Source: Eubacterium sp. AB3007
GTDB taxonomy: Bacteria > Bacillota > Clostridia > Peptostreptococcales > Anaerovoracaceae
Reading direction: 5' to 3'
Assembly: GCF_000688015.1 (NCBI RefSeq)
Contig: NZ_JIAD01000001.1
Location: 310,001-374,000, forward strand
Length of the DNA stretch: 64,000 nucleotides
Both the position numbers and the translations under genes were made by a program. Numbering within the stretch: position 1 is the stretch's first letter; each line of letters starts with the position of its first letter. Below are positions 1,659 to 37,445 of the stretch, piece after piece. The notes under the pieces were generated by a model. It was not told where the DNA came from. It worked only from the letters and a program-made list of their open reading frames with translations, and ran no database searches.

Positions 1659-1880
1659 ATTGTATATGTTTTTATCTAAAAGCTTAACGAGAAAACCCCC
1701 ACTTCTGCAAGTGGAGGGATGAATCGTTCGGTATGGGCCAAAGAATGCTATACGGCTATACCCTCGAGTGTCGCTCTGCAGGAGAGCCATTTCTGAGTAA
1801 AATGATAGGAACTTCCTGTTTCGATATTGCATAAACGGATGACATGTGATACGATAAGAACATACGTTCGGAGGTGTATC

Positions 1881-2984
1881 ATGAAGCGTATCAGAGGATA
1901 CCGGTATCGCGCATATCCAGACCGGAAACAGCAGGCGTTCTTCGCACGGACCTTTGGGGCCTGTCGTTTTGTATATAACTACTATCTTGAACAGAAGAAA
2001 ACGTTTTGGGAGGAGTGTCATGACACGCTGAAATACACAGAAGAAAGCAGAGATCTGTCCCATCACCTGAAAAAGGAGGCACCATGGCTGAAAGAAGCTG
2101 ACAGCATCGCGCTGCAGCAAGCCCTGAGACACCTGGAACAAGCATATGAGAACTTTTTTCAGAAGCGAGGAGGGTATCCGAAGTTCAAAAGCAAACGGCA
2201 TGCTCAGAGTTACCGAACGATGAATGTAAATGGCAGCATCCGGATCGGAGGAGACCGGATCCGGGTACCGAAAGCGGGAGAAGTTAAGATCCGAAATACA
2301 AGAGTCTTTGACGGAAGGATCCTGTCGGCCACGGTATCCATGACAGCCAGCGGGAGGTATTACATCACGCTGCAGGTAGAGGAGGAGGCAGAAGTGCTTC
2401 CGAACAAAGGAGGAGAAACGGGGCTGGATGCTGGGCTGACGGTCCTGTATACTGATTCATCCGGGAAGAGCGTTCCGAACCCAAGGACACAGAAGAAGCA
2501 CGAGAAGAAGATCGCAAGACTTGCGAAGAAGCTTTCGAGAAAGAAGAGAGGATCGAAGAACCGGGAGAAGGCAAGGAAGAAACTTGCGAGAGAACAGGAG
2601 AAGGTAGCAGACATCAGAAGAGACTATTTGCATAAGGAGACCTGTCGGCTGGCGAACGAGAACCAAGTCGTCTGCGTAGAGGATCTGAATGTAAAAGGGA
2701 TGATGAAAAACCACAGGCTCGCCAGGTCCATCGGAGACGCGTCGTGGGGGGAGTTCTACCGGATGCTGGAATACAAGCTGGCAGATCATGGCGGGGTACT
2801 GGTGAAGGTACCGCGGACATTCCCGTCAAGCCAGCAATGTTCATGCTGTGGAAAGAGAAACACGGGGGTCAAGGATCTTTCGGTCAGGAGATGGAAGTGC
2901 CCGGTGTGTGGAGCGCTGCATGACAGAGATGTGAATGCAGCGATCAATATACTGAAGAAAGGGAAGGAGATCCTGGCGGCATAG
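1881..2984 (+). CDS. tnpB: TnpB, RNA-guided DNA endonuclease of IS200/IS605 type
   Basis: 367 residues from the ATG at 1881, which has a GGAGGTG Shine-Dalgarno; the frame is open from 1827 but that start has no such site. The N-terminal OrfB_IS605 helix-turn-helix region is followed by a complete RuvC-like nuclease. Asp183 lies in GLDAGL, Glu267 in VCVEDL and Asp350 in DRDVNAA. A zinc ribbon sits between the last two (Cys320, Cys323, Cys340, Cys343). All catalytic residues are intact, so the protein should be active. TnpB proteins of this family cut DNA using an omega RNA made from the right end of the element. There is no neighbouring tnpA. Confidence 0.93.
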
Positions 2985-3142
2985 AGCCTCTGGGACGAAA
3001 TATCGTACCGTGGGTCGCACGGGAAGTAAAGCCTGTGGAGAGATTGTAAGACGGAGTTCACAAGGGAACCTGCAGTTCTCGATGAAGCAGGAATCCCCCA
3101 CTTCAAATACGCGTCAGTGTATTAAGTGGTGGGAGCGTTCAA
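2985..3142 (+). ncRNA. candidate omega RNA scaffold at the right end of the tnpB element
   Basis: The 158 bases between the tnpB stop and TTCAA at 3138-3142 contain several short stems and end in the right-end hairpin. By analogy with other TnpB elements this is transcribed together with the end of tnpB, and the guide would be the roughly 16-20 bases starting at 3143. Boundaries and processing are inferred from family knowledge, not seen. Confidence 0.55.
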
Positions 3143-3278
3143 ATATGACATACGAAAACACCCAACTTTTCGTTGCAATATAGGATTGTTTCGGTTATAA
3201 TTTTTATAAAGTAGTTTAAAAGACAGGATTACTACTCCATATGGAGCGGTCTGAAGGTTGCGAGAGTCAAATAGAGAG

Positions 3279-3812
3279 AAGCAAGGAGCACACCATCGGT
3301 AGATGGTGTGCTCTGGCTATAGTCGACAGGGCCGCTTGGAAAAGTCGGTAGATAGAGCCTGAAATTACGCTTCTCACAATTTTCATGCGACTCATAATTC
3401 CACATACTGCCTTTGGTTTCCTGAAGATGTGGAATACTTCAGCGCGGGAATTCCACAGATTATCCATGGAACGCTAAAAATGTTGAAAAATCACAGGCAG
3501 CAATTCCACATATCGGATTTATAATTATAAAATGTAGAAAAAATAAAGATAATAATTCCACATATCCATTTTTAATTCTAGAAATGTTGAAAAATCCAAG
3601 ACAGCAATTCTACATATCAGTTCTATAATCCAAAAATGTTGAAAAATCCAAGACAATAGTTCCACATATCTGCTTGCAATCCTAAAAATGTTGAAAATGT
3701 CGATATAATCATTCCACACATCACTTTGCGCATGTCTTGATCTCCCTCGTAAGCAGGTTTGTCTACAGTCTGGAGCACACCACCGGGAAGGGTGGTGTGC
3801 TTCTGCTTTGTG
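3279..3812 (+). repeat. non-coding repeat element, copy A: hairpin-bearing inverted ends and six 52-53 bp units
   Basis: The left end carries a 12-bp perfect hairpin (3286-3297 with 3302-3313). The right end carries an 11-bp hairpin (3774-3784 with 3791-3801) of nearly the same stem sequence. The two ends are imperfect inverted repeats that also share a TGTAGAC/GTCTACA-like block. Between them a conserved block (GTCGGTAGATAG, 3344-3355) leads to units starting at 3396, 3449, 3502, 3554, 3606 and 3658. Most units contain AATTCCACATATC, a variable stretch of about 15 bases, AAAATGTTGAAAA, and a second variable stretch. The array ends in CTCCCTCGTAAGCAGG (3743-3756). A second copy lies inverted at 37066-37445. 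No convincing open frame is inside. Confidence 0.85.
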
Positions 3813-3813
3813 G

Positions 3814-3842
3814 TTGAATAAATACAAGGGATAGGGTATAAT
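3814..3842 (+). promoter_or_regulatory. sigma-A promoter of the ZIP transporter gene
   Basis: TTGAAT (3814-3819), 17-base spacer, TATAAT (3837-3842). It begins directly at the right edge of repeat element A. Confidence 0.75.
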
Positions 3843-3877
3843 TGTTAGAAATCGATCCGTATGAGCAGGAGGAATAC

Positions 3878-4663
3878 ATGTTGTCACAAGAGGTATTACT
3901 GGGGCTGATGCTCCCGTTGGCGGGAACGACGGCGGGGAGCGCCTGTGTGTTTTTTATGAAGCGCGGGCTGCGGATGCAGGTGCAGAAGGCGCTGGCGGGA
4001 TTCGCGTCGGGTGTCATGATGGCAGCTTCCATCTGGAGTCTTCTTATCCCTGCGCTGGAGCAGGCAAACGCCATGGGGCGGCTTGCCTTTCTTCCGGCGG
4101 TGGCGGGGTTTTGGCTGGGGGTGCTGTTTCTGTGCCTGCTGGATCACCTCATCCCGCATCTGCATGTGAACGAAAGCAAGGCTGAGGGAATGCACAGCCA
4201 TATGGCCAGAACCACCATGATGGTCATGGCGGTGGTGCTGCATAACATCCCAGAGGGAATGGCGGTAGGGATCGTATATGCCGGGTATGTGTCCGGCTCC
4301 GGGATGATCACGGCAGGTGGCGCGCTGGCTCTTGCCGCAGGGATCGCGATCCAGAATTTCCCGGAAGGAGCCATCATCTCCATGCCGCTGTATGCTGCCG
4401 GAAGGAGCAGGGGCCGGGCGTTCGTCGATGGGTTCCTGTCCGGTGTTGTGGAACCGGCGGCTGGATTGTTGACGGTGCTTGCCGCCAGTGTGATTCTCCC
4501 GGCCATGCCGTATTTGCTTTCTTTTGCGGCAGGGGCCATGATCTACGTGGTCGTGGAGGAACTGATCCCGGAAATGACCGAAGGGGAGCACTCGCATGTA
4601 GGTGTGCTTCTGTTTGCGGTGGGATTCTCCGTCATGATGACGCTGGATGTATCGCTCGGATGA
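3878..4663 (+). CDS. ZIP-family metal transporter
   Basis: 261 residues from the ATG at 3878, which has AGGAGG seven bases upstream; the frame extends to a TTG at 3842, but that overlaps the promoter. The protein has about eight membrane segments. The ZIP signature is present in membrane segments IV and V: HNIPEGMAVG and, further on, QNFPEGAIISMP, which carry the metal-binding His/Asn/Glu residues. A histidine-containing loop lies before them. The likely role is uptake of zinc or another divalent cation across the cytoplasmic membrane, similar to ZupT/GufA. It is a single-gene unit with its own promoter. Confidence 0.9.
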   Translation: MLSQEVLLGLMLPLAGTTAGSACVFFMKRGLRMQVQKALAGFASGVMMAASIWSLLIPALEQANAMGRLAFLPAVAGFWLGVLFLCLLDHLIPHLHVNESKAEGMHSHMARTTMMVMAVVLHNIPEGMAVGIVYAGYVSGSGMITAGGALALAAGIAIQNFPEGAIISMPLYAAGRSRGRAFVDGFLSGVVEPAAGLLTVLAASVILPAMPYLLSFAAGAMIYVVVEELIPEMTEGEHSHVGVLLFAVGFSVMMTLDVSLG

Positions 4664-6771: not shown

Positions 6772-8652
6772 TTGGCAAGAAATAGAGGAAAGCACGATGC
6801 CAAGCATGGTCAGATCGCAAGGAACAAGCATCAGGCCAAGCGGAATGAGCGTAGGAAGAAGCTTTACAGCCACCCTGTGGTTGTGGAGGAAGAACCATAT
6901 ATCGAGGTAGAGGAATCTGTCGAGGAACCTGTCGAGGAACCGGAAGCGGTCGCTGTGGCAGCCGAGGAGGTGGAAGCACCGGCGGCACCAGCCGAAGAGG
7001 AAGCCCTGGCCGAAGAGGCGGCACCAGCCGAGGAGGAAACCCCGGCCGAGGAGGAAACCCCGGCCGAAGAGGAGGCGCCAGCCGAGGAGGAAACCCCGGC
7101 CGAAGAGGAGGCGCCAGCCGAAGAGGAAGCCCCGGCCGATGAGGAGGCGCCAGCCGAAGAGGAAGCCCCGGCCGAGGAACCTTCGACAAAACCGGAAGGG
7201 AAGGGACTGACCTTCTCTGAGGTGTTTGAGGAAGAAGACCGGGAGGAAGAGTCCAGGCGCCGCGGGAAAGGGCTGAAAATCGCAGCGGTCCTGATCATAC
7301 TGGCCATCCTTCTGGGTGCGGGCTACGTGTTGTCCGACCGTTACCTCATGAGCCCGAACACCTTCCAGAAGGACAGCACCATCAACGACGTGGACGTATC
7401 CGGGCTGACAGAGGAGCAGGCCCAGACGAAGGTCAGGGACTACATCAACAGTGAGACCCTGCGGCTCTATCAGGATGGGGAACCCATTGGCACGATCAGC
7501 GATTTTGAGTTCAACTATGATTTCGGAAACAAGATCAGCAAGTGCCTGTACCCGGGATTCCCCAAGAAGTTCACCAGGCTCTTCGACAAGGATCAGCGTG
7601 AGTACGAGATCGATCTGAAGCCCATCAATCAGGACAAGAACTTCAACAAGCAGTTCGCGGCCCTGGATATCGTCAAGCATGCCAAGGGCACCGAGGAGAC
7701 CAAGAACGCCTACGTGGATCTGACGACTCATGATTTCAACGTGGTGTCCGAGGTTTACGGTAACGGCATTGATACCAGGAAACTCAAGCAGGCATTGATG
7801 GACAGTGTCGGTGCCAACGAGATGGAGTTCCAGTACGATCCGGACGATTTCCGACTGCAGCCCACCATCAAGGCCAACAGCCCGGAGATCCAGCAGCGGC
7901 TGGAGTACTGCAAGAAGTACCTGTCGCAGGAGATCAAGCTGAACACCTTCAAGGGTCCCTACACCATTCCGCCAAAGGAAATGAACAAGTTCATCGAGGC
8001 GGATGCGCAGGGGAATCGCATTATCAAGAAGAAAAAACTCAAGAAATACGTCAAGAAGCTCCGGGAGAACTTCAGTGTCAGCGGCGGGGAGTATGACCTG
8101 GATCTGGTGGGCGGCCATGTCCATGTCAGCGGCGGTAACTACGGTGTCTATGTGGATACCTCTGCGGAGTACAAGCAGCTGAAGAAGGACTTTGCGGCAG
8201 GCACCAACGTGACCAGAGACCTCCTCTATGAGGGCGGAAGGACACCGGCGAGCGGCAACGACATCGGCAACTCCTATGTGGAGATCGACATCAGCCGCCA
8301 GAAACTCTGGTGCGTGGTGAACGGCAAGACCGTCGTCAAGAGCGATGTGGTCACTGGTAACGAGGCAGAAGGGTACGGAACACCGACCGGTCTCTATGTG
8401 ATCGCCTACAAGGTCTCTCCGTGCACGCTGCGGGGAGAGAATGCGGACGGAAGCAAGTACGAGTCCAAGGTTTCCTACTGGATGCCATTCAATGGCGGTA
8501 TCGGCTGTCATGACGCTACATGGCGGGGCAGCTTCGGCGGGAGCATCTATCGGTATTCCGGAAGCCACGGGTGCGTGAACATGCCGTACAGCAAGGCAGA
8601 GGAGCTTTACTACAACGTGGATGCCGGCATGCCGGTGGTGGTACACAACTGA
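6772..8652 (+). CDS. membrane-anchored L,D-transpeptidase (YkuD domain) with acidic repeat region
   Basis: 626 residues from a TTG at 6772 with AAGGGGG upstream; no ATG is better placed. The order is: a basic cytoplasmic N-terminus, an acidic repeat region of PAEEEAP/PAEEETP units (about residues 65-138), one membrane helix (about 168-188), extracellular peptidoglycan-binding-like domains, then the YkuD domain. The active site is SGSHGCVNM, with His599 and Cys601. The enzyme should form 3-3 crosslinks or attach proteins in the cell wall. It is a single gene between its own promoter and terminator. The acidic tract is unusual and is built from near-identical 18-base DNA units, so its length may vary between strains. 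Confidence 0.9.
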   Translation: MARNRGKHDAKHGQIARNKHQAKRNERRKKLYSHPVVVEEEPYIEVEESVEEPVEEPEAVAVAAEEVEAPAAPAEEEALAEEAAPAEEETPAEEETPAEEEAPAEEETPAEEEAPAEEEAPADEEAPAEEEAPAEEPSTKPEGKGLTFSEVFEEEDREEESRRRGKGLKIAAVLIILAILLGAGYVLSDRYLMSPNTFQKDSTINDVDVSGLTEEQAQTKVRDYINSETLRLYQDGEPIGTISDFEFNYDFGNKISKCLYPGFPKKFTRLFDKDQREYEIDLKPINQDKNFNKQFAALDIVKHAKGTEETKNAYVDLTTHDFNVVSEVYGNGIDTRKLKQALMDSVGANEMEFQYDPDDFRLQPTIKANSPEIQQRLEYCKKYLSQEIKLNTFKGPYTIPPKEMNKFIEADAQGNRIIKKKKLKKYVKKLRENFSVSGGEYDLDLVGGHVHVSGGNYGVYVDTSAEYKQLKKDFAAGTNVTRDLLYEGGRTPASGNDIGNSYVEIDISRQKLWCVVNGKTVVKSDVVTGNEAEGYGTPTGLYVIAYKVSPCTLRGENADGSKYESKVSYWMPFNGGIGCHDATWRGSFGGSIYRYSGSHGCVNMPYSKAEELYYNVDAGMPVVVHN

Positions 8653-36817: not shown

Positions 36818-37040
36818 CCTAACCCGATCGCTGCGAGCACAGCGATGCAGGGATCGTAGGTAGGTCAGCCGCGAGGGACGCCCGAGAACGCAAGCAGAGC
36901 GAAGCGTGATCGGATGCGGCCTACCGCGCGATGAGTTTGCGGAGCAAATGGATGGTAGGTCAGCCGCGAGGGACGCCCGAGAACGCAAGCAGAGCGAAGC
37001 GTGATCGGACGCGGCCTACCGCGCGATGACCTAACCCGAG
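36818..37040 (+). repeat. palindromic repeat family, tandem copies in the ilvC-ilvD gap
   Basis: CCTAACCCGA (36818) leads into an ATCGCTG / CAGCGAT hairpin. Two 76-base direct copies follow, 36859-36934 and 36954-37029, that differ at one base; each begins GGTAGGTCAGCCGCGAGG and ends GCCTACCGCGCGATGA, with GTAGG / CCTAC closing stems. A partial CCTAACCCGA appears again at 37029. Related to the unit at 22721. Confidence 0.85.
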
Positions 37041-37065: not shown

Positions 37066-37445
37066 GATTGCGGGCGGACGTTGTCCGCCCGCAGCGTGTA
37101 GACAAATCTCCTGCTTACGAGGGAGTCAAGTAATTCGTAAGGTGATATGTGGAATGATTATTCCGACGTTTTCAACGTTTTTGGAGTACAAAGCTGATAT
37201 GTAGAATTATTGTCTCTGTTTCTTCAACATTTTCAGGGTTCTATGGGTAATCTGTGGAATTCCTCGGCTGAATTACTCCACATCTTCAGGGATCCAAAGG
37301 CAGTATGTGGAATTATCATCGTGTGGAAGTTGTGAGAGTCGTAAGTTCAGTATCTATCTACCGACTTCCCCAGGCGGACAGCCGCCGGTTGAGTATGACT
37401 TTGTCTACAGTCTGAGGGCGGACGCTGTCCGCCCGTGCTTTGTAG
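37066..37445 (-). repeat. non-coding repeat element, copy B (inverted), between ilvC and ilvD
   Basis: Both ends carry hairpins with the same stem: GCGGGCGGAC / GTCCGCCCGC (37070-37092) and GGGCGGAC / GTCCGCCC (37416-37434), each next to GTAGACAAA or its complement. Read on the - strand the inner blocks match copy A in order: GTCGGTAGATAG, a first unit with a hairpin, then AATTCCACA-type units at about 52-53 bp spacing (on the + strand TGTGGAATT-like sites at 37306, 37253, 37200 and 37148), then CTCCCTCGTAAGCAGG. Copy B has three units against six in copy A. It ends about ten bases before the ilvD ribosome binding site. Confidence 0.85.

What the first reader, a model, noticed from the sequence alone, without database searches (positions are those of the whole stretch)
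3279..3812. Unnamed non-coding element with hairpin-bearing inverted ends and a 52-53 bp unit array
Six units start at 3396, 3449, 3502, 3554, 3606 and 3658, and the array ends near 3711. Each unit has two conserved blocks (AATTCCACATATC and AAAATGTTGAAAA) separated by variable stretches of 10-15 bases. The array lies between imperfect inverted repeats that contain hairpins. A second copy with the same block order occurs at 37066-37445 with only three units. This is not a standard IS, MITE or CRISPR array. It looks like a mobile or recombining element with an array that grows and shrinks.
Basis: partly seen in the sequence, partly recalled or inferred. Interest (0 to 1): 0.82.

Follow-up and report, generated by a model that had tools for sequence, protein, structure and literature searches.

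The report
IS1182-type mini-element carrying box lattice
The finding is a small transposon-like element without a transposase gene, whose ends match a known insertion-sequence family and whose middle is a stretchable array of regularly spaced short boxes pointing in alternate directions; the ends are ordinary, while the array, of which this genome has several sequence types, matched nothing convincing in what I searched.

Summary
Copy 1 (3285-3803) and copy 2 (37070-37434, reversed) have six and three 52-53 bp units; six loci in the genome carry such boxes. The ends are not unknown: CAGACTGTAGACAAA with a stem-loop immediately outside is the terminus of IS1182-family insertion sequences. Six of eleven IS1182-type loci examined carry the same stem-loop outside both ends, as do copies 1 and 2 (within-element scores 18-32, between-element maximum 8 in 110). 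So this is a non-autonomous IS1182-type mini-element (MITE) with a duplicated target stem-loop. No IS1182 transposase was found in this genome. The interior is the unusual part: TTCNACAT boxes alternate in orientation with near-fixed gaps (16, then 20/21), boxes much more conserved than spacers (1.74 against 0.74 bits). Two further box types, TTCCGC and TTCCTT, repeat the design with their own rigid gaps; 23 of 26 array loci lie within 450 kb of the inferred origin. I read the array as a protein-binding lattice inside a BOX-like modular element; the binder is unknown. Scans of other genomes, viruses and plasmids gave no array with these gaps.

The parts
3285..3313 (.). Copy 1, left outer stem-loop (one copy of the target stem-loop)
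   Evidence: GGAGCACACCATC..GATGGTGTGCTC; matches the right one with score 19 against a between-element maximum of 8
3314..3395 (+). Copy 1, left terminal region: decayed IS1182-type inverted repeat (GGCTATAGTCGACAG, by eye) and left module with CGGTAGATAGA
   Evidence: Read; left module also in copy 2 and in the copy at 1851 kb (query 51-128, 78%). The left repeat did not pass 3 mismatches
3396..3722 (+). Copy 1 box lattice: six 52-53 bp units plus a closing forward box; TTCNACAT boxes in alternating orientation, gaps 16 and 20/21
3723..3756 (+). Copy 1 right module (CCCTCGTAAGCAGG)
   Evidence: Similar words in copy 2 and in the copy at 1851 kb
3757..3771 (+). Copy 1 right IS1182-type terminal inverted repeat, GTTTGTCTACAGTCT
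   Evidence: same core CAGACTGTAGACAAA in IS1182 element L208
3772..3803 (.). Copy 1, right outer stem-loop (second copy of the target stem-loop)
37070..37092 (.). Copy 2, outer stem-loop GCGGGCGGACGTTGTCCGCCCGC
   Evidence: Same stem as at 37416-37434; score 18
37093..37108 (-). Copy 2 terminal inverted repeat, AGCGTGTAGACAAATC
   Evidence: one mismatch to TTTGTCTACAGNCT; not within 3 mismatches of the longer motif
37109..37143 (-). Copy 2 module with CCTGCTTACGAGGGAG (right module of copy 1, reversed)
37144..37314 (-). Copy 2 box lattice, three units and a closing box
37315..37399 (-). Copy 2 module with CTATCTACCGACTTCC (left module of copy 1, reversed)
37400..37413 (+). Copy 2 terminal inverted repeat, TTTGTCTACAGTCT
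   Evidence: no mismatch
37416..37434 (.). Copy 2, outer stem-loop GGGCGGACGCTGTCCGCCC

Best explanation
A non-autonomous mini-element with IS1182-type ends. Shown by sequence: an end of each window copy matches IS1182-family termini (the opposite ends are decayed), the same stem-loop lies outside both ends of each window copy, no gene is recognised inside, and the interior is a lattice of alternately oriented boxes with near-fixed gaps. Inferred: an IS1182-type transposase acting in trans (none found in the genome now) joined the ends at the feet of a terminator-like stem-loop, and gap filling duplicated that stem-loop. Inferred: the lattice is a set of binding sites for a DNA-binding protein, perhaps the element's transposase or an accessory protein, and changes unit number by unequal recombination or slippage. 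My probabilities: about 0.9 for the ends, 0.5 for a protein-binding lattice, 0.25 for the binder being the element's own transposase.
For: CAGACTGTAGACAAA is found exactly at an end of IS1182-type elements L208 (Enterococcus), L210 (Exiguobacterium) and L212 (Peribacillus), and with one to several changes in L104, L204, L207, L209, L213 and L214; the L104 transposase has DUF772 and DDE_Tnp_1_6 domains. Outer stem-loops agree within copies 1 and 2 and within six IS1182 elements (scores 18-32), against at most 8 in 110 between-element comparisons. PMC5678879 (abstract, sections 21, 22, 24 and part 1 of 29 read) reports stem-loop targets for IS1272 and draws whole stem-loop duplication as one pathway. 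Lattice: head-to-head gap 16 in 16 of 21 pairs 0-25 bp apart, tail-to-tail gap 20 (10) or 21 (11); in the 16 modules chosen for gap 16, boxes average 1.74 bits and spacers 0.74. TTCCGC type: gap 23 in 69 of 71 tail-to-tail and 16 or 5 in 65 of 66 head-to-head pairs. The TTCNACAT array alone does not fold better than shuffles: z -0.66 and -1.32. End motif at <=2 mismatches lies near 10 of 26 array loci; in 264 kb of sampled own sequence it occurs twice, at the two window copies.
Against: No IS1182 transposase found in this genome. 16 of 26 array loci show no end motif at <=2 mismatches, and some of these arrays are long and intact, so arrays exist without such ends. Of eleven IS1182-type loci three have unlike stem-loops at their ends (scores 4-6), one (L205) has end-like motifs on both sides with unlike stem-loops by eye, and one (L211) shows no end. 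No binding protein was identified. One TTCCGC array folds strongly as RNA (z -8.8, 20 shuffles), so for that type a folded strand is not excluded. Head-to-head gaps other than 16 occur: 7 (3), 15 (1), 23 (1).
Confidence: 0.65

Rival explanations
1. Structured-RNA element, like pneumococcal BOX: the array is transcribed and each unit folds.
For: The whole element folds better than shuffles (z -5.0); one TTCCGC array folds strongly (z -8.8); modular design like boxA-(boxB)n-boxC (PMC3049150, passages only).
Against: The TTCNACAT array alone is not special on either strand (z -0.66, -1.32), so the excess probably comes from the end stem-loops. Of 21 facing box pairs only 5 could pair at the variable base. 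Gap lengths stay rigid while loop sequences differ between loci.
Confidence: 0.15
2. Independent host lattice: the boxes are chromosomal binding sites with a role around the origin, and IS1182-type elements merely insert at or carry them.
For: 23 of 26 loci lie within 450 kb of the inferred origin at 1.68 Mb (binomial 2.7e-7, limit chosen afterwards); eight of nine TTCCGC loci lack the end motif at <=2 mismatches.
Against: In copy 1, copy 2 and the 1851-kb copy the array lies between shared modules, so it appears to have moved with the element; both window copies lie far from the origin.
Confidence: 0.15
3. Neutral tandem repeats inside a decayed MITE.
For: Unit number varies (6, 3, 1) and units look recombined; no transposase found.
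Against: Boxes stay while spacers change, with near-fixed gaps in three box types.
Confidence: 0.12
4. REP/BIME-like palindrome arrays moved by a REP-associated tyrosine transposase.
For: Alternating inverted boxes with two linker lengths resemble BIMEs (recalled); two Y1-type transposase genes are in the genome.
Against: In the 3.3-kb loci around these genes there is no A, B or D box and one C box each; the longer gene is flanked by a different palindrome (TGTCAAA..TTTGACA).
Confidence: 0.04

Closest known systems
IS1182-family insertion sequences (including IS1272)
   Same: Terminal motif, stem-loop of variable sequence immediately outside, same stem-loop on both sides in 6 of 11 loci examined
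   Different: No transposase gene here; interior is a box lattice that I did not notice in the IS1182 loci
Pneumococcal BOX elements (boxA-(boxB)n-boxC)
   Same: Two different end modules with a variable number of tandem middle units; 67-637 bp in BOX (PMC3049150, passages), 519 and 365 bp here
   Different: The unit here is a pair of inverted boxes with near-fixed gaps and the ends are IS1182-type; box sequences were not compared
BIME/REPIN arrays (recalled)
   Same: Alternating orientation with regular linkers
   Different: Boxes of about 6-12 bp; no association with a Y1 transposase found
Subterminal transposase-binding arrays of eukaryotic transposons such as Ac and Spm (recalled)
   Same: Many short motifs in both orientations inside the ends
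   Different: Bacterial, near-fixed spacing, no transposase known to bind

Membership tests
IS1182-type MITE | Terminal inverted repeats matching the IS family | tested here: met
   One end of each window copy matches at 0-2 mismatches; the opposite ends are decayed and fail at 3 mismatches
IS1182-type MITE | Stem-loop target, same stem-loop at both ends | tested here: met
   Copies 1 and 2, scores 19 and 18; the other four loci have a recognised end on one side or none, so could not be tested
IS1182-type MITE | Short, no transposase gene | tested here: met
   No Pfam match in the 120-aa ORF crossing copy 1
IS1182-type MITE | Cognate transposase in the same genome | tested here: not met
   NF033551: 0 matches in G000; this is usual but not required of a decayed MITE
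IS1182-type MITE | Empty site in another strain | not tested
   The genome search holds one genome per species; no second strain was looked at
BOX-like modular repeat | Variable number of middle units between constant end modules | tested here: met
   6, 3 and 1 box pairs in the three copies with both modules
BOX-like modular repeat | Sequence homology to pneumococcal BOX | not tested
   No BOX sequence was compared; likeness is of design only
CRISPR array | Near-identical repeats with unique spacers | tested here: not met
   17 units from five loci are 37-91% identical to one another
REP/REPIN | Association with a REP-associated tyrosine transposase | tested here: not met
Known RNA family | Rfam match | tested here: not met
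   Only two tRNAs in the window at gathering score

The most novel reading that the evidence does not exclude
The genome carries a family of DNA lattices of one design (inverted boxes at near-fixed gaps) in at least three, perhaps four, sequence specificities, concentrated around the replication origin and partly riding on IS1182-type mini-elements: a new kind of multi-site protein-binding array, for instance for a fast-evolving transposase or nucleoid protein.
Probability: 0.3. Interest if true: 0.8.

Novelty: new variant of a known kind. Interest (0 to 1): 0.55.

Why it matters
It ties an unnamed repeat to the IS1182 family and shows stem-loop duplication as a recurrent outcome at IS1182-type elements, which the IS1272 paper drew as one possible pathway. 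If the lattice binds protein, it offers an unusually regular natural set of sites in several specificities, with which the binder and its spacing rule could be found directly.

Tried and rejected
IS30 family as parent: four identical IS30-like copies in the genome have other ends and duplications of about 13-14 bp; in 18 of the 30 loci I saw no such end beside a stem-loop (by eye). IS1634 family: an IS1634-like fragment in G012 precedes one such end (L145), which is a result against a pure IS1182 reading of the motif; but IS1634 elements of G007, aligned copy to copy in four groups, have other ends, and this genome has no match. Array parent elsewhere: the one genome-contig scan gave 6 stretches; on reading, 5 look like chance and L137 has five ATGTTGAA/TTCAACAT boxes close together but with other gaps. 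Viral scans for the three box types gave 0, 19 and 113 stretches; the rows listed (all 19; 80 of 113) show a single match each, save one palindromic site counted twice, and I did not read them. A scan for a longer end word gave 0. Phages and plasmids by blastn with copy 1: no match. Copy 1 in 98 other genomes: two weak matches, G062 and G067, read as chance. A TTCCGC array in 30 other genomes: one 29-bp match in G014, E 9.7e-4. The TTCCTT type was sought in the own genome only. A scan for exact 6-mer lattices: four runs of four boxes in 400 kb of three relatives (one with gaps 4, 7, 4; others without a repeated gap) and four runs in 264 kb of this genome, one of them the TTCCGC array at 1480 kb; one shuffle per stretch gave none. 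It missed both window arrays and the TTATGGCA array, so it is insensitive to degenerate boxes. Literature listings showed no title on such an array; I read parts of three papers only (PMC5678879, and passages of PMC3049150 and PMC10969869).

Full report
What is there. Copy 1 spans 3285-3803 between an IS605-type TnpB gene (1827-2984) and a ZIP transporter gene (3842-4663); copy 2 spans 37070-37434 between ilvC and ilvD. In the whole genome (one contig, 2.30 Mb) six loci carry TTCNACAT boxes in this design: 313, 347, 1461, 1603, 1622 and 1851 kb (together). Copy 1, copy 2 and the 1851-kb copy share a left and a right module and hold six, three and one box pairs; the others hold five (1603), three (1622) and three (1461) and lack a recognised end on one or both sides.

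The lattice. Each unit holds one forward box TTCNACAT and one reverse box ATGTNGAA. Counting boxes with at most one mismatch, the gap from a reverse to a forward box is 16 in 16 of 21 pairs that lie 0-25 bp apart; the other five are 7, 7, 7, 15 and 23. The gap from a forward to the next reverse box is 20 (10 pairs) or 21 (11 pairs). The period of 52 or 53 is close to five turns of DNA. In the 16 modules with gap 16, chosen for that gap, box columns average 1.74 bits and spacer columns 0.74. Of 21 facing box pairs 5 could form a base pair at the variable position, which speaks against a conserved hairpin. Copy 1 units 1 and 2 match copy 2 units 1 and 2 at 87% and 81%; copy 2 unit 3 matches copy 1 unit 5 (77%) and 6 (75%), as if joined from both.

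The ends. TTTGTCTACAGTCT with a stem-loop at once outside occurs at ends of the copies and also in other genomes of the order, though several hits of the short pattern there lie in coding sequence. An IS1182-family transposase locus in G019 has this kind of end. With its protein I searched plasmids (2024 records with a match), phages (22) and viral contigs (3 loci), fetched 8 of the 30 plasmid and phage hits listed, and used 2 of the 3 viral loci. Of these 11 loci (with G019) six have the same stem-loop outside both ends, three have unlike stem-loops, L205 has end-like motifs with unlike stem-loops by eye, and L211 shows no end; the last two were not entered. Copies 1 and 2 behave as the six do: scores 19 and 18, six elements 18-32, three elements 4-6, at most 8 in 110 between-element comparisons. 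In copy 1 the two stem-loops differ by paired changes that keep the stem. The IS1272 paper (PMC5678879; abstract, sections 21, 22, 24 and part 1 of 29 read) reports stem-loops as targets, with replacement and no duplication as its mode, and draws whole stem-loop duplication as an alternative. Our cases fit the alternative. One end of this kind also lies beside an IS1634-like fragment (L145), so the motif may not be confined to IS1182.

More lattices in the same genome. Following the end motif led to arrays with other boxes: TTCCGC at nine loci and TTCCTT(CAGAAT) at ten. Not all are long: one TTCCGC locus has three exact boxes, and of the TTCCTT loci three have one to three. For exact boxes and neighbours less than 60 bp apart, the TTCCGC tail-to-tail gap is 23 in 69 of 71 pairs and the head-to-head gap is 16 in 35, 5 in 30 and 6 in 1 of 66; 11 further neighbours point the same way (gaps 34, 35, 45), most with an inexact box between. 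Gaps 16 and 5 alternate strictly at 1480, 1662, 1528 and 1343 kb but not at 1810 kb. For TTCCTT the gaps are 25 in 20 of 22 and 13 or 12 in 13 of 15. The two TTCCGC loci at 1320 and 1323 kb look like one array split by an insertion. A fourth box type (TTATGGCA) was seen once, at 1478 kb. The end motif with at most two mismatches lies near 10 of the 26 array loci; in 264 kb of own sequence, taken as a control, it occurs only at the two window copies.

Place on the chromosome. GC skew changes sign near 1.68 Mb and between 0.45 and 0.56 Mb; DnaA-box words and a GyrB pattern lie at 1.680-1.684 Mb, while my DnaA protein pattern gave no match in the 100 kb read. Of 26 loci 23 lie within 450 kb of 1.68 Mb (binomial 2.7e-7). 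The limit was chosen after seeing the data and a few loci are neighbours, so the number overstates the case; with 24 loci and a 500-kb limit around 1.65 Mb it was 21 of 24, 1.0e-5. The two window copies are exceptions, nearer the inferred terminus.

How it may work. The ends and the doubled stem-loop are best explained by insertion through an IS1182-type transposase acting in trans; none was found in the genome. The array most likely binds protein, since box sequence and spacing are held while spacers drift, and since the array strand does not fold better than shuffles. Which protein binds is open. A TTCCGC array folds strongly as RNA, so the folding view is not excluded there.

Range. I found no array with these gaps outside this genome: one genome-contig scan for the TTCNACAT type, 6 stretches read; viral scans for three types, single matches, not read; 98 other genomes with copy 1 and 30 with a TTCCGC array; plasmids and phages with copy 1. 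Records very near the window's own genome may be left out of those collections, and no metagenome collection was searched.

Verdict. Known ends, unusual interior. New variant of a known kind, interest 0.55.

Noticed in passing
G000 1662538-1662955, 1528720-1529305, 1342000-1343850, 1810377-1811145, 1948929-1949599 (L271, L273, L275, L269, L099): Long arrays of GTTCCGC/GCGGAAC boxes with head-to-head gaps 16 and 5 (strictly alternating in the first three); units within one array are nearly identical by eye, as if recently expanded.
   Followed up: partly
G000 1477997-1478150 (L294): A fourth array type with TTATGGCA boxes in both orientations, followed by another repeat with GGATACG words.
   Followed up: no
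G000 1391-1394, 1792-1795, 1804-1807, 2187-2190 kb (L091-L094): Four identical copies of a 1708-bp IS30-like element with a 443-aa frame, duplications of about 13-14 bp and repeated TTACAAC-like words near its ends.
   Followed up: partly
window 1827-3170: IS605-type TnpB gene (Cas12f1-like TNB domain) just before copy 1; the stretch after it may hold its guide RNA (inference).
   Followed up: no
window 36820-37040: Two copies of a GC-rich repeat (GGTAGGTCAGCCGCGAGGGACGCCCGAG...) beside copy 2; similar words beside the array at 1949 kb.
   Followed up: no
L323 (G000 1111295-1111624): A 245-aa Y1-type transposase flanked by palindromes TGTCAAA...TTTGACA, also seen in L024: looks like a REP-associated transposase with its repeats.
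   Followed up: partly
window 6991-7175: Tandem 18-bp/54-bp repeat GCCGAAGAGGAAGCCCCG inside a large ORF.
   Followed up: no
G069 898700-900000 (L048) and other G069, G080 loci: Short elements or single ends of other sequence with the same terminal motif in genomes where one search found no IS1182 transposase.
   Followed up: partly
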